Assembly (NCBI GenBank): GCA_021300155.1
Contig: JAJTID010000001.1
Span: 124,001 to 188,000, forward strand
Source of the DNA: Pirellula sp.
GTDB lineage: Bacteria > Planctomycetota > Planctomycetia > Pirellulales > Pirellulaceae
DNA: 64,000 nt
Direction: 5' to 3'
The notes below the pieces were generated by a model that saw nothing but the letters and a program-made list of their open reading frames with translations, was not told the origin of the DNA and did no database searches. This document shows, piece by piece, positions 48,290 to 64,000 of this stretch (positions are counted from its first letter, which is position 1; the number at the start of each line of letters is the position of its first letter). A program made the translations under genes and the position numbers.

Positions 48290-48973
48290 GCTTCATTTCG
48301 TTGCCGGTGAATCGTTGGGCACTCTGCGATTATCGCGAAAGCTCGAAACTATACAAGCGACTATGCCAGCACCCGCTGTTCTTCAAAGGTGTGGCATCAC
48401 TTTACGGCAGTGGGACTGCTTCGCGTCGGACAGCACTTGGCAACTGATCGACGAAATCGATTGCTTGACATCGCGCACTTTGCTTCGGCCGGGGCGGCGA
48501 GTTCTGCACGCGGGCTCAACGACACTCTAGAAATGGCAGCCCTATTACTTATCGTGCCGAGCTCATCGGAAAAGTGCGCGATACTTTTCATGGGAATCAT
48601 GATTGCTGTAGGGGCCATGTCGAATGCGACGAAAGTTGCAGAAACACAGGGCAAGGAGGTGACCGATATGACAGCAGGTCAAGGATTTTCGGCCAATCTC
48701 GTCACTGCGATCCTGGTCACGACGGCCAGTTTTCATAATATGCCAGTCAGCACAACGCATGTTAGCGTTGGTTCGCTTCTAGGGATGGGAGTAATTACAA
48801 AGCAAGCGAAAGGGAGAAAGGTTGCAAAAATACTCATAGCATGGATCACCACGGTTCCATACTCGCCAAAAATACCTAACGGTTTGTTCGTCAAGGCTAT
48901 CTCCAAAATAGCGGTTTACAGATCGTTCGTTCACGTATTTCGACCGACCAAGGTTTTGAATCGGAGAGTTTAG
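48290..48973 (+). pseudogene. Decayed PiT-family inorganic phosphate transporter
   Basis: The readable C-terminal half (from about 48470) contains ASSARGLNDTLEMAALLLI, GIMIAVGAMSNATKVAETQG and HNMPVSTTHVSVGSLLGMG, the defining PiT permease motifs (normally FARGLNDTPKI and PVSTTH). It ends in a scrambled tail (WITTVPYSPKIPNG). The preceding coding resumes in another frame (AVLQRCGITLRQWD, about 48375), and the N-terminal half with its first GANDV-type motif is missing. A truncation plus at least one frameshift is inferred; the gene is unlikely to work. Confidence 0.7.
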
Positions 48974-52028: not shown

Positions 52029-52199
52029 GTCTTGAGCCGCCAAGTTCCTGTCGTGAGTCTTTCCTCGTGATGATTTGATTTAATATGTTCGTGGGGAGTC
52101 GAACGACAGAAGATGTTCTTTACGACAACATGATCAAGAATATGTTGCGTTTGTTTCACTTTGACTACTGTGGAAAGAAATTGCTTTGCAAGCGGTTAC
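52029..52199. other. Flank of recombinase relic
   Basis: About 170 bases of short frames with no gene recognised. It may include the missing upstream part of the recombinase remnant. Confidence 0.35.
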
Positions 52200-52520
52200 T
52201 GAGCCCTGCGACGACGGTGGCTTCACCGGTGGCAACATGGATCGTCCGACGCTTGCCAATCGTGTGGCTGCGGCATGACGCATTCGTTTTTTTGTGAAGA
52301 CGCCAAACGATACCGCTACTATGTCTGCGGTACAGCCATGCAGCGAGGCTGGTCGGAGTGCCTATAGCCGTCGGTGCCTGCTGGTGAGATCGAGCGGTTC
52401 GTGGTGGAACAAATTCGAACGATCGGCAAGGGCACAGCGCTATTGAAGCAAACGGCCATCGATGTTCAACTACGGAACAATGTCGAGTGCAAGCGATCAC
52501 GTTTCATCCAACCGGCTTGA
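52200..52520 (+). pseudogene. Degenerate large serine recombinase
   Basis: Three frames must be joined to read it. CDDGGFTGGNMDRPTLAN (about 52207-52260) matches the end of the resolvase catalytic domain of large serine recombinases. A different frame then gives CGCGMTHSFFCEDAKRYR and YYVCGTAMQRGWSEC (about 52263-52361), the zinc-ribbon domain, followed by a stop (TAG) and PSVPAGEIERFVVEQIRTI (from 52366). The DNA between the domains is deleted, and the N-terminal Ser region and coiled coil are missing. Non-functional. Confidence 0.75.
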
Positions 52521-52778
52521 AAAGCTTATCATCGTTCGTGCTGTCGCTCCACCTTCTGGGCTAACGTCCACATTAAAAGTTCTGCTTGCTCGTATTGATC
52601 TAGTTCGTGCTTAAGGTTGTTATTCATTTGTCCGGTATGGTTCAGCGAGAGAAGTTGAGAAGGAAAAACTTCGATATATTTTCTTGTGATTTGGCGTCAG
52701 ATTACCGCATCGAGAGGAGAATATTCGTATCCGAGAATAATACCTCTCAACCTCTCAACCAACTCAGGAATTCGCAGG
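52521..52778. other. Intergenic region upstream of the DUF1501 gene
   Basis: About 260 bases with no recognised gene; it probably holds the promoter of the downstream operon. The direct repeat ACCTCTCAACCTCTCAACC at about 52742-52760 (two CCTCTCAA copies) lies just before the ribosome-binding site. Confidence 0.4.
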
Positions 52779-54173
52779 ATGAATCCACCCGCTCCTTATC
52801 TTCGCGGTTGTTCCGGATTTCGAGCCGCGCCGCGCCGTCAGGTACTCCAGGCCGGAGTGCTTGGTGCGCTTGGGATTTCCATGGCTGATTTGTTTCGCTT
52901 GCAGGCCGAGGATAGGTCTGGGGTGACGATTGCCGGTGGCAAAAAGATAGAGCCGCACGCGATGAGCGTTATTCAGATCAATCTCCCCGGTGGCTTTCCT
53001 CACCACGAGTCGTTTGACCCCAAGCCCGAGGCGCCCGTTGAGTGTCGCGGATCGTTTGGCGTCGTCAGGACAAGCTCGGGAGAGGTGTTTAGCGACAACT
53101 TGCCTAAGCTAGCTGGCATCGCTGGCAAGATTACCGTCGTGCGGTCTGTGGTTGGAAAGATTCCGGACCATGGTTTGGCCACCTATCATCTCCATACTGG
53201 CTACACTCCTTCTACTGTGATTGACTATCCGCAAATGGGTTCGATCGTTTCGCACGAACTCGGTCCGCGAGGGGAACTTCCTTGCTATATCGCCTTGCCT
53301 GGAAAAAATGTATCGGGTGGAGGAACGGGTTTTCTCCCGAGCGTTCACGGGCCATTTGAAACGGGTGGTGATCCTGCGACCCAGAAAAAGGACTTTCGAG
53401 TCAGGGACTTTTCTTTGCCTTCGGATTTAACCGTAGAGCAGCTCAATCGTCAGCGATTTGTTCGCGACACTGTCGAGAAACGGATTCGCGCTCTTGAGGC
53501 GAATCCGGTGTTGTTGGATACGATGGACGAGTTCCATGCCAGGGCGTACTCGCTCTTAACTTCGAGCGGTGCCCAGCAGGCCTTTTCTTTTGAAGGCGAA
53601 AGCAGCGAGATCTTGGATCTGTATGGAAGCCAAGTGACAGGAGACGTCAAGGGTCCCGATAACAGGTTTCACCCCAAAGGTCTTGCAGAAAGGTTGATTA
53701 TCGCGCGCCGGTTGGTCGAGGCGGGGGTGCGGTTCGTGACGCTGGAGTACGGAGGTTGGGATTGTCACGCGGACGTTAGGAAGTCTTGTATCGACCAGAT
53801 GCGGCCGTTCGATTATGCGATTGCGGGACTCGTCAGCGATTTAGAGCGACGCGGATTGCTCGACTCAACCATCGTCTGGGTGACGAGTGAGTTTGGGCGG
53901 ACGCCGATGATCAACAAGGAGAGTGGTCGAGATCACTGGGCTCGGTGCTATTCGATGATGATTGCAGGAGGTGGCTTCAAACAAGGGTTAGTCTATGGAG
54001 CTAGTGACTCGACGGGTGGTGAACCATCGCGCGACGCCATAACTCTTGAGAATCTCATGGCTACTATCTATCACCAGTTGGGTATCGACCCAAACAAAGA
54101 ACTGGTGGCATTTGGCACTCGCCCGATCGAGATCATTCGTGATGCGGAAGTTGTCAAGTCGCTCCTGAGTTGA
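52779..54173 (+). CDS. DUF1501-family secreted sulfatase-like protein
   Basis: A 464-residue DUF1501 protein. Its N terminus has a twin-arginine-type leader ([22 protein letters not shown]). Family landmarks [44 protein letters not shown] and [13 protein letters not shown], with [16 protein letters not shown], are in order. The fold belongs to the alkaline-phosphatase/sulfatase superfamily, but the activity is unknown. ATG 52779 with AGGAA about eight bases upstream is chosen over a longer frame. It is first of the long co-directional block. Confidence 0.92.
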
Positions 54174-54207
54174 GAGTTTCGACATTTTTTATAGGAGCCA
54201 ACACAGT

Positions 54208-56697
54208 ATGCGTTCATCCAGATTGTTGACATTCACTTTTTCAGCGCTTGTTGTCGTTTTTCAGGCTGTTGCCGTTGCGGACCCTTGGATCACGGGTGTG
54301 ACGCCGCGACTTGTAGGCCGAGGCACGACAAGCGAAATTATTATCGCCCCGTGGCGTCACGAAGCAGTGGATGTCTTGTTCTATCCGCAGGCAACCTATG
54401 TGCCTTGGACCGCATTAGACACCAATGCATCGCCCGGCATCCGTTGTGTCGGAGCGGATTTCGACGCAGCGAAACAACGGCTTGTCTGCAAGCTTGAGGT
54501 CCCGCCAAACAGTCAGCCGGGCGAACATCCGTTTCGTGTGCTCACCGGTTTGGGTCTATCCTCGATGGGGACAATCTATGTCAGTCCTTTCCCGGTCATC
54601 GACGAGGGAGAGACCAAGTACAACACGAACGATACCTTCGAAAACGCCTTGCGCGTTGAGCAAAACGTAACCGTCCGCGGCACGCTTTCTAAAAGCCCAG
54701 CCAACGACATTGATTGTTTCCGTTTGGCGGGTAGAGCTGGCGAGAGACTGTCTATTGAAGTTGATATGGTGAAAATGGGAGATGACCTCCAATGGAATCC
54801 TGTTCCCGATGGCTACGATTCTGTCGTCGCGGTCTTCGATCCGCAAGGGAAAAGGATCGCCATCAATGATGACTCGGCACTCAATCGCCAGGACCCGCTC
54901 CTTTCAATTCGACTGCCGGTGGATGGTGATTACACGATTGTACTGCGGCGTTCGATGTTCGTACCACAAGACCGCGAGTATGCGATACACATAGGAAGCT
55001 ACTTCCGACCATTGACCGCTTTTCCATTGGGTGGGCCTGCGGGCAAACCGCTAGAGGTTCAACTGCTTGGTGACCCTATGGGTACGATGTCGCATGTGGT
55101 TGAGATGCCACAAGTGCCACGAACGTTTCAGCATTTCGTCGAAGCCCCGTTACCACTCTCGCTACGATCGAGTCCGTTTCCTAACTTGATTGAGGAACAC
55201 GGCCAACCCGAGACACTTGTGCCTTCCATCCCTGTCGCAGTCAATGGCATCCTTAGCAAACAAGACGAAGTCGATCGGTTTCGCATTCGCGTGGAAAAGG
55301 ATGTACCGCTCCAGGTTCGAGTTTGGGCCAGTGCGCTTGGATCGCCCGTAGACCCTTCGATCAAGATCAGGCCGATCGTTGCGGCAGGATCAGCTGGGGA
55401 AGTTGAATTAGAATCTGACGATGCCAAACTCCCGGAAAGGGACATCTTTGGCGCACAAGGTGACTTTCCTGACACATTTGACCCATCGGTTGTTTGGGTA
55501 CCCAAGCGGGATGGAGAGTACTGGCTTGAGATCAACGATCCGCGTGGAGCGGGAGGCCCGACTCATGTTTACCGAGTCGAAATCGCTCCACCATCGAACA
55601 CGTTGCATATTGGTTTGTCCCATGAACAATACAAGCCGGAACGTCCACGTAAGACATCACTTTCCGTCCCTCGAGGTAGTCCTTGGACTGTTAGGCTTTC
55701 GCTTTATCCTGGTCAAGGAAGTATCTTTACAGGACCGATCGATCTTGCGTTCGAAGGGTTACCTTCCGGTGTGAAGATGTTTTCACCTCGAATGCCGACC
55801 CTGCAGTCGGTCTGGCCAATGACACTCGTTGCTGACGTCGATGCACCGATTGCTGCGTCGCTAGTTCGAGTGACAGCGATCCCAGCCGATGGAGGCGAAC
55901 CGTTCGTAACCGTTAATCAACAGAATTTGCAACGTGTATCCTATTCTCACTATCCGTGGCGCAGCATTCGCGTGGATCGCTTCGCCGCATCCGTAAGCGA
56001 GCCAGCTGGTTTTGCTGTACGGATCGAAGCCCCCAAGCAGCCGCTGATGCGCGGTTCCGAAATGACCATCCCGGTGACAATCGAGAGGCAACCTGGATGC
56101 GACGAACCGCTCGAAATGCAGTGCGAATTCGGTCCCGCAGGTGTCGGCATGTCTCCAGCTCAATTGATCCCGGCGGGCGAAAACAGTGCCAGCCTTACAC
56201 TCTCAGCCGATTTGAATGCCAAGCTCGGCAGTTCGCCTCTTTACGTGATAGTGACCACGACCCAGCCACGGGGAGGTCGCTCGAAAAGCTCGGTAAGCGG
56301 AGATACAGCGTTAGGATCTGAACGTGTGCGGGTCTCTTCGGAGCTCGTAAACATCGAGGTCGCTGAGCCCTTCGTGTCCCTATCGAGCGATCCACAGAGC
56401 GTTCGCAGGGGCGATCGAATAGCATACCGTTGGGCGGTCAAGAAGCTGCGTTCATTCGAGGGACAGGCTAGTGTCCGAATACTTGGACTGCCGGTAGGAG
56501 TCACTGCATTAGGCCCCGAGCCATCCATCAACAAATCTTCAAATGATGTCGCAATAGAACTCGAGGCTAGCGATCAAGCGCTCCTAGGTATGGTAAGTAA
56601 TCTCCAATGCGACGTGAAGTTTTCCGTAAACGGTGAAGAGATTCACTTGCGAACGGGCTCGGGGAAATTGCGAATCGATCCGCGATTGGAAAAGTAG
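54208..56697 (+). CDS. Large secreted pre-peptidase-like (PPC) beta-sandwich protein
   Basis: An 829-residue protein with a signal peptide (about 1-25). A beta-rich N-terminal region leads into two segments resembling bacterial pre-peptidase C-terminal (PPC) domains: [19 protein letters not shown] followed by [18 protein letters not shown], and [18 protein letters not shown]. Further Ig-like strands fill the rest. It begins 34 bases after the DUF1501 gene with an AGGAG site. Planctomycete homologues always accompany DUF1549/1553 or DUF1501 genes. Probably a structural surface or periplasmic component. Confidence 0.82.
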
Positions 56698-56743
56698 TTG
56701 GATCAATTCATCGGAAAGCGAAAACGGAACAGGGACCCCCTTT

Positions 56744-58999
56744 GTGAAAATCGTGAATATGAAGTCGATTTTGCTGCTATTAGCAATGGTTGTGGAAGTG
56801 ACTAGAACTGCAGTGATGGCATCGGATACAGCCGGTCAAACGACAACAGCCGATAACGCGGTAGTGCCGAGTTTTCGGCGCGATGTAATGCCTGTCTTTT
56901 TCAGAGCCGGTTGCAATTCCGGTACTTGCCACGGATCAGCACGCGGCAAAGACGGTTTCATGCTCTCGCTATTTGGGTACGATCCAGCTGGCGACTATCG
57001 CCGAGCGGTTGAAGAGATACCGGGGCGCCGAGTCAATGTTGCCATGCCGCGCGAGAGTTTGTTGCTGCTCAAAGCCCTAGGTGCAGTGCCTCATACCGGC
57101 GGAAAGCGAATCGAGTCCGACAGCGATCTGGCTAAAACACTTGTTGCTTGGATTGACGCTGGTGCCCCCGACGACGTTGGTACCATACCTGATGTAGCAG
57201 GCATTCACGTTTCGCATCCAGCAATGGTCTTTGACAAACCCGGCGCGTCAGAGAGCATGCGAGTCATGGCCACCTACGAAGACGGATCTACCCGCGACGT
57301 GACATCATTAGCACTGTTTGGTACCAACAATCCAAGCGTTGCCGATATCGATTCAAATGGTCGGGTCAATGCTAAAGGTTCAGGTAACACAACCGTCTTT
57401 GCTCGTTTCAGCCGTTTTACTGTCGGTGCCGAGGTAATCGTGTTGCCGCCGGGCGATCATTTTGCTTGGCCCAACCCTCCTGAGAACAATTTCATCGATA
57501 CTCTTGTGTTTGAGCGGCTCAAGAAGCTACGGATCGTTCCAACTGAAATTTGCGACGACGAGACATTCCTTCGACGAGTGACACTCGACCTAGCGGCGCG
57601 TCCACCCACGGTTGACGAATACAAAACCTTCAAAGAGGACATGTCAGCGGGAAAGCGAGCGGAGAAAATCGACGCGTTGCTCAAAAGCGAAGATTTCAAC
57701 GATTACCAGACAGCCCTTTGGGGTGAACTCCTGCGGGTGAACAGTCATGACTATACCGGGCGGGCTGATTCTCACAAACCAGCGAATGCATTTTTGGGCT
57801 GGATCCGGGACCAGGTAGCAGCCGATCGACCGTTCGACGAGGTCGTCGCTGATATGGCGACTGCGGTTGGCAGCACGAATATCGATGGTCAAACAGGCCT
57901 CTACACCATGTTGATCAAAGACTACAAACTCAATCCCAAGGTATTAGCTGCGGACTTTTCCCAGCTATTCCTTGGAGTGCGAATGCAGTGCGCCGAATGT
58001 CACAACCACCCATTCGACCGATGGACGATGGATGACTACTACGGTTTCGTCAGCTTCTTCACGTGCGTCAAGCGAAAGACAGGCAGCGACAGTCGCGATC
58101 GTCGAGTCGTATTTGATCCATCAGCGCCGCCGGCTATGCATGCGGTTGATGGCCGGCCAGTCCCAGCAAAGTTACTCGGAGAACTAACGCCTGTTGGAGG
58201 CGAAGGAGATCCTCGTCGTGCGCTTGCAGATTGGATCAAGAGCCCAGCAAATGACCTCTTCAATCGAAATATTGTCAACCGAATTTGGGCGCAATTGCTC
58301 GGTGTCGGAATCGTTGACCCAGTAGATGACTTCCGTGCCACAAATCCGCCGTCTAACGGTCCACTTCTCGACGCGCTTGCAGCTCGGTTCGTGGAGAACG
58401 GGCGTCGGATTCGCCCCATCTTTCGCGACATCTGCAATTCCCGAGTCTACCAGCTATCGGTCCAGCCGACTCCTTCAGGAAGAGATGATACCAGACAGTT
58501 CTCGCACGCACGCCTTCGAAGACTTCGAGCAGATGTACTGCTCGACTCCATTGTAGCCGTCACGGGCGTACCTCGATCACTTCCCAATTCACCGGTCGGC
58601 ACCAAGGCCATCAATTACATTAACCGCAAACAATCCTACGCAGCTACGGGTGATTTCGTGCTCGATACCTTTGGGCAGTCGCCACGGAAGACCGTTTGTG
58701 CATGTGACACCAGGACCGATCCATCGCTGTCGCAGGTCATGCATCTTCTGGTTGGTGACACTGTCGGTACAAGGGTTCATACCGCTGCTAAGAACGGAGT
58801 GCTCAAAGAGATCGTAGATGCCGATTCAAATCCGGATCGGATCATCGACGCTATCTTCATTCGCGTTCTTGCTCGACGCCCAACCAAGGAAGAGTTAGAG
58901 TCCATGCTCGAACTTGTCGAGGAAAACAATTCGTCTTCTATCTATCAAGACATTTTCGCTGGACTGATCAGCTCTAGCGAGTTCCTCTTTAATCATTAA
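56744..58999 (+). CDS. Big2-DUF1549-DUF1553 protein with CX4CH cytochrome-like motif
   Basis: About 751 residues from GTG 56744. A signal segment is followed by a CNSGTCH motif (CX4CH-type, about residues 61-67), an Ig-like Big2 domain (about 160-225, [20 protein letters not shown] and [17 protein letters not shown]), then DUF1549 ([17 protein letters not shown] and [19 protein letters not shown], a CXXCH) and DUF1553 ([11 protein letters not shown] through the C terminus). Two candidate haem sites suggest an electron-transfer or redox role. An AGGGA site lies about eight bases before the GTG; ATG 56759 is the alternative start. Confidence 0.9.
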
Positions 59000-59059
59000 T
59001 GCCTCGGCATCACAGGTTCGGACTGCGCCGTTCAACCCTCACTCGACTCGGAGATTACC

Positions 59060-60484
59060 TTGAAGCTATTACGTCGCCTGCCTCTTCCGATTTTTGCAGT
59101 GATTCTGACTTTTGCATTCGTAGCCAACATCCGCGCTCAAGTTGGTAAGGAAGAAAATAGTAAGGACCATAATGGTAAACCCATTACGTTCGAGGACGAT
59201 GTCGCAGCAATTTTTAAGAAGTCCTGTTCGGTATGCCACGGCGATGGTAAGCAGGAGGCTGGCTTGAACCTCGCAAACTATGCGGCTGTTATGAAAGGGA
59301 GTGGAGGGGGGGAAATTGTCGTAGCCGGCCGGTCCTCGGCGAGCCGGCTCATCGAAGTACTCAGGTCAACGGAAGAAGGGGAACGCATGCCTCCGGACGG
59401 AGAAAGATTGTCCATCGAGGCAGTATCCATGATTTCGCAGTGGATTGATACTGGACTAAGGGAGAACGCTGGCAGTTCGGTGGCAGCGATGCGAACTCTC
59501 GGGTTCAAAGCTGCACCACTCGCCGATGGGGCGCTGGGGGCGGTTCCAACGAACTTGCCTACAATAAACCCGATTGAAACACGACGCCCCTATCCGTTAC
59601 TAGCCTTGGCTACCAGTCCACTTGCACCAGTCGTGGCTGCCAGCCGGTACACGGCAATCGAACTTCTAACCCCATCATCGCGAAGTCCGCTTGGGACGCT
59701 CCCATTTCCAGAGGGTGAGCCGCTGGTAATCACATTTAGCCGATCCGGCAGATTGCTTCTCGTTGCTGGCGGTAAGCCTGTTCAGAGTGGGGTGGTTGTG
59801 CTTTTCGACGTAGCGACAGGAAAACGACTCGCGACCGTTGGTGACGAACCCGATGCGATCATCGCAGCGGATATCTCACCTGACGAGAAACGGGTGGCAA
59901 TCGGCTGCACGAGCCGGCTCGTAAAGCTCTATTCTACTGAGGATGGCAGCCTTCAAGCGACGATTAACAAACATACCGATTGGGTTACCGCAGTCGCATT
60001 CTCGCCAGATGGAAAGTATTTGATCACGGGGGATAGGATCGGCAATATCCATCTCTGGGATGGAGCGACGGGCGGAGTGATCCTCCCCCTTTCCGAGCAC
60101 AAAAAGTCGGTCCGAGCTCTCTCATGGCGGAGTGACTCGAATGTCATCGCATCGTGCGGCGAAGATGGTACTCTCGTGTGGTGGGACGTGAAAGATGGTT
60201 GGCCATTAGAGACCAAACCAAACGCTCACCCCGGTGGTGTACTCGACTGTCGGTTCGGACCGCAGGGGGAACTAGCGACTTGCGGTCGAGATGGCACTGT
60301 AAAGCTTTGGTCTACTGATGGAATCGAAAAATCGAAAATACTGCTCAACGAATTGGTATCGGCAGAGTTTCAAGCTCCGAAGGGTGTGCGACTTCTGCCG
60401 ATCCGAGTTGCTATGTCGGGCGACAGCGAAACTGTAATTATCGGCGATACGGGTGGCGATTTGCACGCATGGAAGGTTCCTTAG
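59060..60484 (+). CDS. Planctomycete cytochrome-c domain plus WD40 protein
   Basis: A 474-residue protein with a signal peptide (about 1-26), then a PSCyt1-type cytochrome domain ([21 protein letters not shown] at about 56-60, and [12 protein letters not shown] with an axial-type Met). WD40 repeats follow from about residue 220: [57 protein letters not shown] and [10 protein letters not shown]. The TTG start at 59060 has GGAG seven bases upstream. It follows the DUF1549/1553 gene by 60 bases. It probably partners that protein. Confidence 0.9.
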
Positions 60485-60598
60485 GGATTTTTTCCCTTGT
60501 TAATTCGGTTTCATTCGTAAATGACGGGTTTCTGCCGGAGATATTTCAGTGCGAGTTTCAAATTCGGCGGTTTTTGTTTTTTAGGATGGAGTAAAAGC

Positions 60599-61708
60599 AT
60601 GATGAGGCGGTACAGAGACGGATTCACTCTAGTGGAGTTACTTGTAGTGATTGCGATTATTGGGATCTTGGTGGGATTGCTATTGCCAGCAGTTCAAGCG
60701 GCTCGTGAAGCGGCGCGAAGAATGCAGTGCACGAACCAGCTGAAGCAGTTTGGGTTAGCATTGCATAATTACGCGGATGCGTACAAAAGATTCCCGGCAG
60801 GGTCAGGCGGATCTGGCGGTCCAACCGGTATGGGCAATCCGCGAAGTAACCAAAATCGCATCAATGCGATGATCGGTCTATTGCCTTTTGTGGAGGAAAG
60901 TGCCCTCTACAACATGATTCAGGCTCCGCAGACTTTTGGAGCCAATTCTTTTCCGCCAGGTGGCCCCGCTCCTTGGGAAGCAAGTTACGATCTTTGGGGC
61001 TCGCAATTTCAAGTGAAGGGAATGAATTGCCCCTCCGATAGCCCAGTTGGCGACCCTCGTGGTGGACGCTGGGCAGGTGGTGCCGCCGCGACGACAAGTT
61101 ACGCGTTTTGCCATGGCGATCACATGACTGGTATTCAAGACCAAGGTGCATATCAACGACGCGGAATGTTCGGTACAAGAAGCTGGACTGGCTTTAAGGA
61201 CATTACCGACGGTACAAGCAACACGATGGCGATATCAGAGCGTTGTTTCCCGAAGGGAGACCGATCTCTTTTTGGAAGAACGATCGAAGGACTAACTGGA
61301 ATCACAACCAATCCAGCGCTATGTTTGGCTCAAGTCGATCGCGCAACTCGACAGATTCGCGCTTCCGTGCCAGCGTGTGGTGGATTCCCATGCATTTCGG
61401 TATATCGAACGGGCGGAACGCGTGCCTATGATGGGATGCCGATCTACACAGGATTCAACGCCATCTTGCCGCCCAATAGTCCATCCTGCTTGATCGGTAA
61501 TATCAACACGCGAGGAGTTATGTCGGCCCAGAGTTGGCATACTGGAGGTGTCAACTGTGTTTTTGGCGATGGCTCCGTTCGGTTCATTTCCGAGAGTATC
61601 GATGCTGGGAATTCAGGGGCTCCCGAAAGTCTAAGCGGACCGAGTCCATACGGAGTTTGGGGGGCGCTCGCAACCATTAATGGTGGCGAAGTAGCCAGCG
61701 AACAGTAA
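60599..61708 (+). CDS. DUF1559 prepilin-like H-X9-DG protein (second copy)
   Basis: A 369-residue DUF1559 protein with the start [18 protein letters not shown] (cleavage after Gly8), [20 protein letters not shown] and [17 protein letters not shown] (H-X9-DG). ATG 60599 has GGAG seven bases upstream; the longer frame is not expected to be used. It parallels the copy at 26.6 kb, including the lipoprotein that follows, but the two proteins differ in the middle third. Confidence 0.93.
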
Positions 61709-61861
61709 CGCAACTTGATGTGCGATGTGGCCGAGTTGAATCGCGACTCGGCTTGAACCTGGTACGCTAAATTGTGCGGTAATCGAATTCGCCGGCACTC
61801 GCGGCACTACAGAGATTCCGGTGAATCCCACTAAAGTCAATTCAAAGAGAGCTGCGTTTAG

Positions 61862-62323
61862 ATGTTGAAAAGTTGTTTTTGTGTTTCCCTGATCTGCTTC
61901 GGAATGTTATCCATCGTTGGATGTACTGGCGGACAAGAAGAGAATCCTAATTGGCCCAAGCGATTTCGCGCATCAGGAACGGTCACTTACCAAGGAAAGG
62001 CAATCGAAAACGCTGAGGTCACTTTCACAAGCAAAGCTGGGCACTCAACAGGTGTGGGCAAAACAGACAATGCTGGTCGTTTTCATTTGACAACACATAT
62101 CGAGAAAGATGGCGTGGTGGCGGGCCCCCACGTTGTTTCGATTCGTCGGGTCGAGGTTATCGATAAGACGCCAAAAGACGTCGACGTTTCGGCTGGTGGT
62201 GTCGCTCTCCCCCCAGAGATTAAGTGGATCATTCCTGAAAAATACTCGATAACAACCAAGTCCGGTCTGACTGCAGACGTCACCGAGTCGGGACCCAACG
62301 AATTCAAGTTCGATTTGAAGTGA
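61862..62323 (+). CDS. TTR-like (carboxypeptidase-regulatory-type) lipoprotein, second copy
   Basis: A 153-residue lipoprotein with a lipobox (LSIVGCTGG, Cys at about residue 21). A transthyretin-like sandwich follows: ASGTVTYQGKAIENAEVTF and GKTDNAGRFHLTTH. It is similar in plan to the 27.8-kb protein and again follows a DUF1559 gene. Its stop overlaps the GTG of the sigma-factor gene. Confidence 0.83.
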   Translation: MLKSCFCVSLICFGMLSIVGCTGGQEENPNWPKRFRASGTVTYQGKAIENAEVTFTSKAGHSTGVGKTDNAGRFHLTTHIEKDGVVAGPHVVSIRRVEVIDKTPKDVDVSAGGVALPPEIKWIIPEKYSITTKSGLTADVTESGPNEFKFDLK

Positions 62324-62838
62324 GCTCAGTACCCAGTCGACACTCGCTGTTTCTGCGCTCCTTCACCATGCATGAATCGAGTGTACGCGCGTACGTTCGA
62401 CGGTTGCTCCCTGCGCGAGCTGATGCGGATGATGTTATGCAGCGAGTCGCGTTGGTGTTGTGGGATAAGTTCGATCAGTTTCGCGAAGATGGGGATTTTC
62501 GAAAGTGGGCCTTCGGCGTTGCCCGATACGAAGTGCTAGCGTGGTTGCGCGATCATGGACGCGATCGGTTGGTACTCGCCGGTGATGTGGCAGAGATGAT
62601 AGCGAGTGAGTCAGCTGAGCAAGAGTCTCTATTCGAGCAACAACGCACGGCACTTCAGCTCTGCCTTGAGAAGATTGCTCCGCATAACCGACAATTGCTT
62701 CTCGAATGTTATCGATCAGACTTGAAGATTCAAACCGTTGCGGCCACTAGCGGTAGATCGGTCGGTGCCTTTTACCAGTGGTTGCATCGCATGAGACGCA
62801 TCCTTTTGGATTGTGTTCAACAAGAAGTGGCCAGGTAA
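62320..62838 (+). CDS. ECF sigma factor, Rhodopirellula/Verrucomicrobium type
   Basis: A 172-residue ECF-type sigma factor. Region 2 contains ADADDVMQRVALVLWDKFDQF and FRKWAFGVARYEVLAWLRDHG; region 4 contains ENCYRSDLKIQTVAATSGRS-like residues (LLECYRSDLKIQTVAATSGR) and YQWLHRMRRILLDC. The pattern matches the planctomycete/verrucomicrobial group. The GTG at 62320 overlaps the lipoprotein stop. Its FecR-type anti-sigma gene follows by three bases; it may control this operon. Confidence 0.9.
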   Translation: MSSVPSRHSLFLRSFTMHESSVRAYVRRLLPARADADDVMQRVALVLWDKFDQFREDGDFRKWAFGVARYEVLAWLRDHGRDRLVLAGDVAEMIASESAEQESLFEQQRTALQLCLEKIAPHNRQLLLECYRSDLKIQTVAATSGRSVGAFYQWLHRMRRILLDCVQQEVAR

Positions 62839-62841
62839 AAA

Positions 62842-64000
62842 ATGCGTATGAATGATCTTGATTTCCTGATCAATCGCTATATCGACGGACTTGCTTCCGA
62901 GCATGAAGTTGCACAGCTAAACGAGATCCTGCGGTCCAACGCGCAGTCGCGGCAGATATTTGCAGAGCACCTCAACATCGATTCAGCGTTGGCCGAAGTT
63001 GCTGCGGGTTTACCCGGCAAACAAGCGGCAATCGATGACATCGTTCAACTGAATCAAAGGGCTTTGTTTTCCAATGCGATTGCATACTCTATTACTGCGG
63101 TAGCTGCCGCGGTCGTGATTTCTGTTGGAACCTGGCTTTGGTTAGCAAACTCAACGAGCAACCGAATTGCAAGCACACCAGCTGTTTCCATCAATGACAT
63201 TTCTGAAAATAGTACCTCAAGTGTAGCCGTTTTCGTCGATGAAGCAGGGGCCAAGTTCGCTTCGGACCGAGGGCCGTTCGGAAGAAAGTTCGAACCGGGA
63301 GATTACGAATTGGTCGCTGGCGTGGCACACCTACGGTTCGCCTTGGGCGCTGAAGTGATTCTCAATGCGCCCGCTCGCTGGACAATCTTGGATTCGATGC
63401 ATGTTCGAGTCGAGTATGGAAAGCTGCGCGCGATCGTTCCGCCATCGGCAAAAGGGTTTTCGATCATGACGCCGGATGCGGAGTATATCGATTTGGGAAC
63501 CGAATTTGCATTGGGTGTCGATAAGAGTGTAGGCGCAAGCGATCTTTATGTATTCGATGGTCAAGTGAATGTGGCGAATAATTCGTCGAAACAAGTGATG
63601 CAAGAGGTGTTTGAAGGCGAAGCCAATCGCTATAGCCAAGGCGTCGCCGAGCCAGCTCCTAAGATGGATGCAGCGGATTTTCCCACACCTAACCAAATCG
63701 GCTTGGTACGTTGGCAAAGTCACATCGAACAACTACTGAAAGCCCCAGGATTGATCGCCTTTTTCCCGTTCCACAAAACGAACGATGAATCGGTTCTTGG
63801 GAACGAACTCAGGCACACAGAACATGCCATCCCAGACGGACGAATTGTTGGGGCTCGTTGGGTGTCGGGACGCTGGCCCGGAAAAGACTCGCTGCTCTTT
63901 GACGGGGACAACGAACGTGTGGAGTTGAGTATCCCCGGAGCGTTTCGAGAGTACACCATCGCGGCGTGGATCAAGATTGATCGCTTGGATTATGAAATGA
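62842..64000 (+). CDS. FecR-like anti-sigma/LamG protein (3' end outside window)
   Basis: At least 386 residues, cut by the window end. It starts NDLDFLINRYIDGLASEHE, a cytoplasmic anti-sigma-like segment, followed by one transmembrane helix (about 78-97), a FecR-type beta domain (about 140-245, LRAIVPPSAKGFSIMTPDAE and IDLGTEFALGVD) and the start of a LamG domain (about 335 onward, LLFDGDNERVELSI). AGG lies about seven bases before the ATG. It probably restrains the preceding sigma factor and senses something at the surface. The remaining domains lie past 64000. Confidence 0.88.
   Translation, partial: MRMNDLDFLINRYIDGLASEHEVAQLNEILRSNAQSRQIFAEHLNIDSALAEVAAGLPGKQAAIDDIVQLNQRALFSNAIAYSITAVAAAVVISVGTWLWLANSTSNRIASTPAVSINDISENSTSSVAVFVDEAGAKFASDRGPFGRKFEPGDYELVAGVAHLRFALGAEVILNAPARWTILDSMHVRVEYGKLRAIVPPSAKGFSIMTPDAEYIDLGTEFALGVDKSVGASDLYVFDGQVNVANNSSKQVMQEVFEGEANRYSQGVAEPAPKMDAADFPTPNQIGLVRWQSHIEQLLKAPGLIAFFPFHKTNDESVLGNELRHTEHAIPDGRIVGARWVSGRWPGKDSLLFDGDNERVELSIPGAFREYTIAAWIKIDRLDYEM

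What the first reader, a model, noticed from the sequence alone, without database searches (positions are those of the whole stretch)
52779..64000. Compact DUF1501-PPC-DUF1549/1553-cytochrome/WD40-DUF1559-TTR-sigma-FecR module
Eight co-directional genes with gaps of about -4 to 153 bases combine two haem-motif proteins, large beta-sandwich surface proteins, a pilin-like subunit, a lipoprotein, and their own ECF sigma factor and anti-sigma with LamG. Each family is known only as a planctomycete domain of unknown function. Together they look like a self-regulated surface machine, perhaps redox-linked capture or degradation of a polymer. This is the strongest candidate for an undescribed system.
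Basis: partly seen in the sequence, partly recalled or inferred. Interest (0 to 1): 0.75.

Follow-up and report, generated by a model that had tools for sequence, protein, structure and literature searches.

The report
Mobile haem-protein operon in planctomycetes
Eight genes lie in a row; four of them form a predicted exported haem-and-hydrolase unit that recurs in the same order in many planctomycete and verrucomicrobial genomes and is inherited as a block, while the other four (pilin-like protein, lipoprotein, sigma factor, anti-sigma) are add-ons seen beside few copies, and the function of the unit is still unproven.

The parts
52779..54173 (+). Core gene 1: DUF1501 protein, twin-arginine N-terminus, predicted alkaline-phosphatase/NPP fold
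54208..56697 (+). Core gene 2: PPC-type protein, 829 aa, secretion signal by eye
   Evidence: no Pfam hit; profile of relatives matches collagenase PPC/collagen-binding domain 5iku E 3.5e-6; matches at E 0.001 in 158 of 196 genomes of the order, partial ones included
56759..58999 (+). Core gene 3: PSCyt2/DUF1549 + PSD1/DUF1553 protein with N-terminal cytochrome-like domain (C-x4-CH), Ig-like Big_2 domain, second haem motif CxxCH
59060..60484 (+). Core gene 4: PSCyt1 cytochrome domain (CxxCH, MPP) + WD40 propeller; TTG start
   Evidence: PF07635 1.3e-12, PF00400 2.8e-28; C56, C59, H60, M110 invariant in 28 rows
60521..61708 (+). Accessory: DUF1559 pilin-like protein (prepilin N-terminus, H-X9-DG)
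   Evidence: DUF1559 genes with TTR-like genes also lie among the tandem cores of L040
61862..62323 (+). Accessory: TTR/carboxypeptidase-regulatory-like lipoprotein (lipobox by eye)
   Evidence: CarboxypepD_reg 26.8 bits, below cut-off 32.3
62320..62838 (+). Accessory: ECF sigma factor of TIGR02989; its GTG start overlaps the stop of the previous gene
   Evidence: 167.8 bits, cut-off 124.55; highest of 34 matches in the genome; overlap seen
62842..64000 (+). Accessory: FecR/LamG anti-sigma-type protein, continues to L009:2419 (525 aa in all)
   Evidence: FecR 25.5 bits over cut-off, Laminin_G_3 63.6 bits in the full protein; 42-53% identical to the FecR/LamG beside four other compact cores

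Best explanation
The locus is a compact, laterally moving copy of a four-gene module of PVC bacteria (DUF1501, PPC protein, PSCyt2/PSD1, PSCyt1/WD40), carrying here a regulatory and pilin-like tail. Shown by calls: gene order, block inheritance, invariant haem-c motifs, the predicted alkaline-phosphatase/NPP fold of DUF1501, and the recurrence of one FecR/LamG family beside cores of this clade. Inferred: all four proteins are exported (Tat for DUF1501, Sec for the others) and work together outside the cytoplasm. The WD40 protein is a His/Met cytochrome on a propeller scaffold that exchanges electrons with the low-potential, probably bis-His haem of the PSCyt2/PSD1 protein; the second haem, in the PSCyt2/PSD1 helical body, is the redox centre that acts on the substrate; DUF1501 hydrolyses or transfers a phosphate- or sulphate-type group on the same substrate; the PPC protein binds the substrate or holds the complex. 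FecR/LamG senses the substrate or envelope state and releases the ECF sigma factor, which switches the operon on.
For: Order DUF1501-PPC-PSCyt2-WD40, co-directional: 28 of 40 loci, 45 of 80 named loci, with 11 more of the 80 holding all four in another order or orientation. Distance matrices of the four proteins correlate at r 0.86-0.94 over 86 loci, 0 of 1000 permutations as high. The compact clade, less three deep members, has support 1.0 in each of the four gene trees. Haem motifs and H58, H112, H415, H417, H662 invariant in 81 rows; C56, C59, H60, M110 in 28. The N-terminal region of PSCyt2 aligns with PSCyt1 of the WD40 protein (hhalign E 3e-9, probability 96%). DUF1501 fold. The genome has one cytochrome c assembly match and one TatC. 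FecR/LamG beside compact cores 5 of 23 against 0 of 57; the five form one clade with only L201 added (support 0.973). Own genome: 45 of 49 PSCyt2 hits have a DUF1501 hit within 4.5 kb on the same strand, 3.7 expected.
Against: No substrate, activity, complex or haem loading is shown by any search. L041 shows no WD40 gene in the 6 kb held downstream of its PSCyt2, and L042 none in the stretch fetched. In much of the AP superfamily an Asp-His pair is a metal ligand (recalled); DUF1501 reads SEFGR or GEFGR where I would place it, so the metal site may differ or be lost; no coordinates were available to map residues. The first haem motif lies in a part of the PSCyt2 model with pLDDT under 50 (residues 53-64). 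The closest relative L079 has no sigma/FecR; in the four other sigma/FecR cases these lie upstream of the core, not downstream as here. In the own genome sigma factors are not clearly enriched near PSCyt2 (2 of 17 within 4 kb, 1.0 expected). No conserved promoter was seen upstream of DUF1501 in three aligned loci, and promoter- and terminator-like sites are no more frequent than in shuffles. The FecR/LamG family is not exclusive to cores: L201 and L202 carry it without one in view. The mirror-tree correlations also contain shared species history.
Confidence: 0.5

Rival explanations
1. Two independent units lie side by side: the four-gene core, and a separate DUF1559-lipoprotein-sigma-FecR/LamG cassette whose sigma factor controls other genes.
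For: L079 has the core without the tail. In the own genome the 17 best sigma hits lie within 3 kb of a DUF1559 in 4 cases, 0.8 expected, while PSCyt2 is not enriched near DUF1559 (3 of 49, 3.9 expected) nor sigma near PSCyt2 (2 of 17, 1.0 expected). Sigma-FecR-DUF1559-TTR without a core is seen in L205.
Against: The window FecR/LamG is of the family seen beside other compact cores; DUF1559/TTR genes interleave with tandem cores in L040; the lipoprotein and sigma genes overlap by 4 bases and no gap in the row exceeds 153 bases.
Confidence: 0.3
2. The module is a sensory or structural envelope complex without catalysis: DUF1501 is a non-catalytic alkaline-phosphatase-fold scaffold and the haems sense redox state or gas.
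For: Changed metal-ligand motif in DUF1501 (recalled comparison); WD40, PPC, Ig-like and LamG are binding domains, and a sigma/FecR pair is next door.
Against: DUF1501 keeps many invariant polar residues (H131, W327-D328-x-H330, E371-F-G-R, D385-H386: all 66 core rows and 17-19 of 19 generic rows), more than a scaffold needs; 45 PSCyt2-DUF1501 pairs in one genome fit varied enzymes better than sensors.
Confidence: 0.2
3. The module serves cell-plan or membrane organisation, as earlier suggested for the DUF1501 module of compartmentalised PVC species.
For: Earlier authors noted the module preferentially in compartmentalised PVC species (Kamneva et al. 2012 as cited in PMC4960237, passage seen); it is common in the order (158 of 196 genomes with a PPC match).
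Against: Patchy in the phylum (15 of 119 genomes with a PPC match of 380 bits or more, my count), lateral spread of the compact type and more than one copy in some genomes fit an accessory metabolic trait better than a cell-plan gene set.
Confidence: 0.05

Closest known systems
DUF1501 module of PVC bacteria (Kamneva et al. 2012; paper not held, seen only as cited in passages of PMC4960237, PMC4452313, PMC5122149)
   Same: Conserved gene module around DUF1501 in Planctomycetes/Verrucomicrobia; signal peptides noted (PMC4452313); electron transport was suggested (recalled from its abstract).
   Different: Whether its gene list is this four-gene core could not be checked; the window copy belongs to a compact clade with a pilin-like/sigma/FecR tail.
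PSCyt2/PSD1-DUF1501 gene pairs (Studholme et al. 2004 as cited; He et al. 2017, PMC5615132, passages seen)
   Same: Same two families side by side; 45 of 49 PSCyt2 in this genome. PMC5615132 reports PSCyt2 genes usually next to an unknown family.
   Different: The core adds the PPC protein and the PSCyt1/WD40 protein.
ECF factor RB10049 beside PSCyt2/PSD1 protein RB10051 in Rhodopirellula baltica (PMC2754498, passages seen)
   Same: Sigma factor proposed as regulator of a PSCyt2/PSD1 gene.
   Different: Here with FecR/LamG, DUF1559 and the full core.
DUF1800-DUF1501 pairs of other bacteria (PMC5122149, passages seen)
   Same: DUF1501 with a standard partner; the DUF1800 model rings just over its cut-off on the core PSCyt2 of G001 (27.0 against 26.1 bits), and hhalign aligns 270 columns collinearly (E 0.0024; other three core proteins 0.29-0.68).
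   Different: The printed DUF1800 sequence lacks the haem motif at the aligned place; homology is suggestive only (hhalign probability 12%).
Nucleotide pyrophosphatase/phosphodiesterases and other alkaline-phosphatase-superfamily enzymes
   Different: 10-19% identity in the rows listed; ligand motif seems to differ (recalled); no activity shown.

Membership tests
PVC four-gene core DUF1501-PPC-PSCyt2/PSD1-PSCyt1/WD40 | All four genes adjacent, co-directional, in this order | tested here: met
PVC four-gene core DUF1501-PPC-PSCyt2/PSD1-PSCyt1/WD40 | Co-inherited as a block | tested here: met
PSCyt2/PSD1 proteins (PF07583/PF07587) | Both domains over curated cut-off | tested here: met
   151.4 and 141.4 bits, cut-offs 29.8 and 28.5
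c-type cytochromes | Haem attachment motifs CxxCH / C-x4-CH, invariant in relatives | tested here: met
c-type cytochromes | Covalent haem in the protein | not testable with these tools
   needs haem stain or spectra; an assembly protein is present
Alkaline phosphatase superfamily | Fold | tested here: met
Alkaline phosphatase superfamily | Two-metal ligand set and nucleophile | tested here: inconclusive
   D/H/E residues conserved, but the usual Asp-His motif (recalled) is not seen; no coordinates to map
TIGR02989 ECF sigma factors | Model score over cut-off | tested here: met
   167.8 against 124.55 bits
FecR-type anti-sigma partner | FecR domain, gene directly after the sigma gene | tested here: met
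   25.5 bits over cut-off 24, 3-base gap
FecR-type anti-sigma partner | Represses this sigma factor; sigma-dependent promoter at the module | tested here: inconclusive
   no conserved upstream motif in three loci; binding not testable
DUF1559 pilin-like proteins | N_methyl prepilin motif, SBP_bac_10, H-X9-DG | tested here: met
DUF1501 module of Kamneva et al. 2012 | Gene list of that module | not tested
   paper not held
DUF1800 | Homology of PSCyt2/PSD1 to DUF1800 | tested here: inconclusive

The most novel reading that the evidence does not exclude
PSCyt2/PSD1 is the haem-bearing branch of a DUF1800-like enzyme superfamily whose constant partner is the alkaline-phosphatase-fold DUF1501, and the compact clade is a transferable redox-hydrolase unit with a dedicated FecR/LamG sensor that is kept with the core while the sigma factor beneath it is exchanged.
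Probability: 0.22. Interest if true: 0.68.

Novelty: new variant of a known kind. Interest (0 to 1): 0.45.

Why it matters
This genome alone has 62 DUF1501 and 49 PSCyt2 matches, and I found no functional study of either in the library searched. The four-gene core gives one well-bounded set of orthologous partners of clonable size (about 7.7 kb), with predicted ligands and fold, on which function can be tested in a laboratory planctomycete.
Full report
What is there. The window is contig C108:124001-188000 of a 6.46 Mb, 260-contig genome. Eight + strand genes run from 52779 past the window end to L009:2419: DUF1501; an 829-aa protein without a Pfam hit; PSCyt2/PSD1; PSCyt1/WD40; DUF1559; a small lipoprotein; an ECF sigma factor; FecR/LamG. 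The gaps are 34, 61, 60, 36, 153, -4 and 3 bases. The second protein is of PPC type by profile match to the collagenase collagen-binding domain (5iku, E 3.5e-6).

The core. A search with the PPC protein found matches at E 0.001, partial ones included, in 158 of 196 genomes of the order. A sample of the phylum with the profile gave 60 of 119, of which I count 15 genomes with a match of 380 bits or more. I fetched 40 stretches, most around chosen PPC matches, two from the own genome, and mapped the eight families with profiles grown from the window proteins. Leaving out L009 and L078, which were not fetched for a PPC match, 28 of 40 loci (window included) have DUF1501-PPC-PSCyt2-WD40 co-directional in order (my count). 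The other 12 are short of a gene in the stretch held, often at a contig end (L013, L041, L044, L047, L050, L058, L062), rearranged (L042, L043, L049, L052) or interrupted (L040). The two sets overlap in part (L081 is L040, L108 is L052; other overlaps were not checked).

Block inheritance and mobility. Over 86 loci the distance matrices of the four proteins correlate at 0.86-0.94 (0 of 1000 permutations as high); part of this is shared species history. The concatenated tree shows a long type, common across the order, and a compact type with the window. The compact clade without its three deep members (L052, L057, L108) has support 1.0 in all four gene trees; with them it has 0.963 (DUF1501), 0.67 (PPC), 0.984 (PSCyt2) and is absent from the WD40 tree. 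The own genome also has a long-type copy on C30 (L051), which groups with L071 of the same genus, whereas the compact copy of that same genome (L045) is not sister to the window's. The nearest relative of the window core, L079 of Aporhodopirellula aestuarii, has integrase-like ORFs 0.3-3 kb downstream, one over and one just below the Pfam cut-off, and a recombinase-like remnant lies just upstream of the window core (by eye). I infer that the compact core is laterally transferred.

The tail. DUF1559 genes stand beside 2 of 37 compact and 2 of 78 long-type loci. A FecR/LamG gene stands within 4.5 kb and on the same strand beside 5 of 23 compact loci and 0 of 57 long-type loci that have 2.5 kb of upstream sequence or such a gene (Fisher p 0.0014, related loci counted as independent). 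One long-type locus, L067, has a sigma/FecR pair about 4.2 kb upstream on the other strand, which that rule leaves out. The four other compact cases (L048, L083, L093, L094) have the pair upstream of the core; the window alone has it downstream. The five FecR/LamG proteins are 42-55% identical to one another, and 24-32% to others over long stretches, up to 38% over about 100 residues. A search of the order listed, apart from the window, three matches of 45% identity or more: one beside a compact core, L201 beside another DUF1501 gene near a contig end, L202 with no core in 19 kb; the rest of the list is at 36% or less. In a tree the five plus L201 form a clade (0.973), with L202 next (1.0). 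The sigma factors do not form one clade. Of 13 next-tier FecR/LamG loci inspected, 10 have an ordinary PSCyt2-DUF1501 pair nearby, co-directional in L206, L211, L214 and L215 and divergent or opposite in the others; L205 and L206 have DUF1559/TTR; L209 and L212 have none of these. L206 has sigma, FecR, DUF1559, TTR, PSCyt2 and a partial DUF1501 match in a row. So the tail belongs to a modular repertoire that recombines around such pairs.

A link to DUF1800. In the own genome a DUF1800 gene (C227:54586-55845) lies just before a DUF1501 gene (C227:56040-57023), and among 14 control genomes both families ring in the same two (Caulobacter, Deinobacterium). The DUF1800 model also hits the core PSCyt2 of G001 at 27.0 bits (cut-off 26.1), and hhalign gives a collinear match over 270 columns, E 0.0024, probability 12%, against 0.29-0.68 for the other three core proteins. 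This suggests, without proving, that PSCyt2/PSD1 and DUF1800 are related and that DUF1501 has a standard kind of partner.

Known work (passages seen, no paper read whole). PMC5615132 reports PSCyt genes in Verrucomicrobia, PSCyt2 next to an unknown family, and a possible carbohydrate role. PMC2754498 cites the ECF factor RB10049 as regulator of a PSCyt2/PSD1 gene. PMC5587647 notes DUF1501 and sigma-70 genes near WD40 genes of planctomycetes. PMC4960237 and PMC4452313 cite a DUF1501 module from Kamneva et al. 2012, which is not held; I recall its abstract as suggesting membrane targeting and electron transport. The passages I saw do not state the four-gene order, the compact clade, the FecR/LamG family or the DUF1501 fold; the last is also how I recall Pfam's clan for DUF1501, so the fold is not claimed as new.

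Verdict. A real and well-conserved unit in a known but unexplained gene family, here in a compact variant with a partly dedicated regulatory tail. Identity of the unit is well supported; its chemistry is inference.

Noticed in passing
window 52165-52560: Remnant resembling the zinc-ribbon C-terminal part of a serine recombinase, broken by stops, directly upstream of the core; judged by eye from three-frame translation.
   Followed up: partly
L079:10561-13224: Integrase-like ORFs (Phage_int_SAM_1 below cut-off; Phage_integrase 9e-9) next to the closest named relative of the window core.
   Followed up: partly
L009:4740-5729: Amidohydro_2 protein (8e-43) 2.3 kb after the FecR/LamG gene; the same family recurs in compact-core stretches L043, L049 and L093.
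   Followed up: partly
L009:7018-10818: A long protein with CxxCH motifs followed by a shorter protein, looking like the PSCyt3/DUF1592-DUF1552 kind of pair; both have relatives in L094. Family names by eye.
   Followed up: no
L040:2-18426: Two core copies in tandem, with three DUF1559 and three TTR-like genes interleaved and one WD40 gene at the end.
   Followed up: partly
window 48389-48973: A 194-aa PHO4 phosphate transporter piece matching only profile positions 195-346 of 350, followed by a TrkA_C protein: possibly a split or truncated transporter.
   Followed up: no
L206:7474-15350: Sigma, FecR/LamG, DUF1559, TTR-like, PSCyt2 and a partial DUF1501 match in one row, without PPC or WD40 hits.
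   Followed up: no
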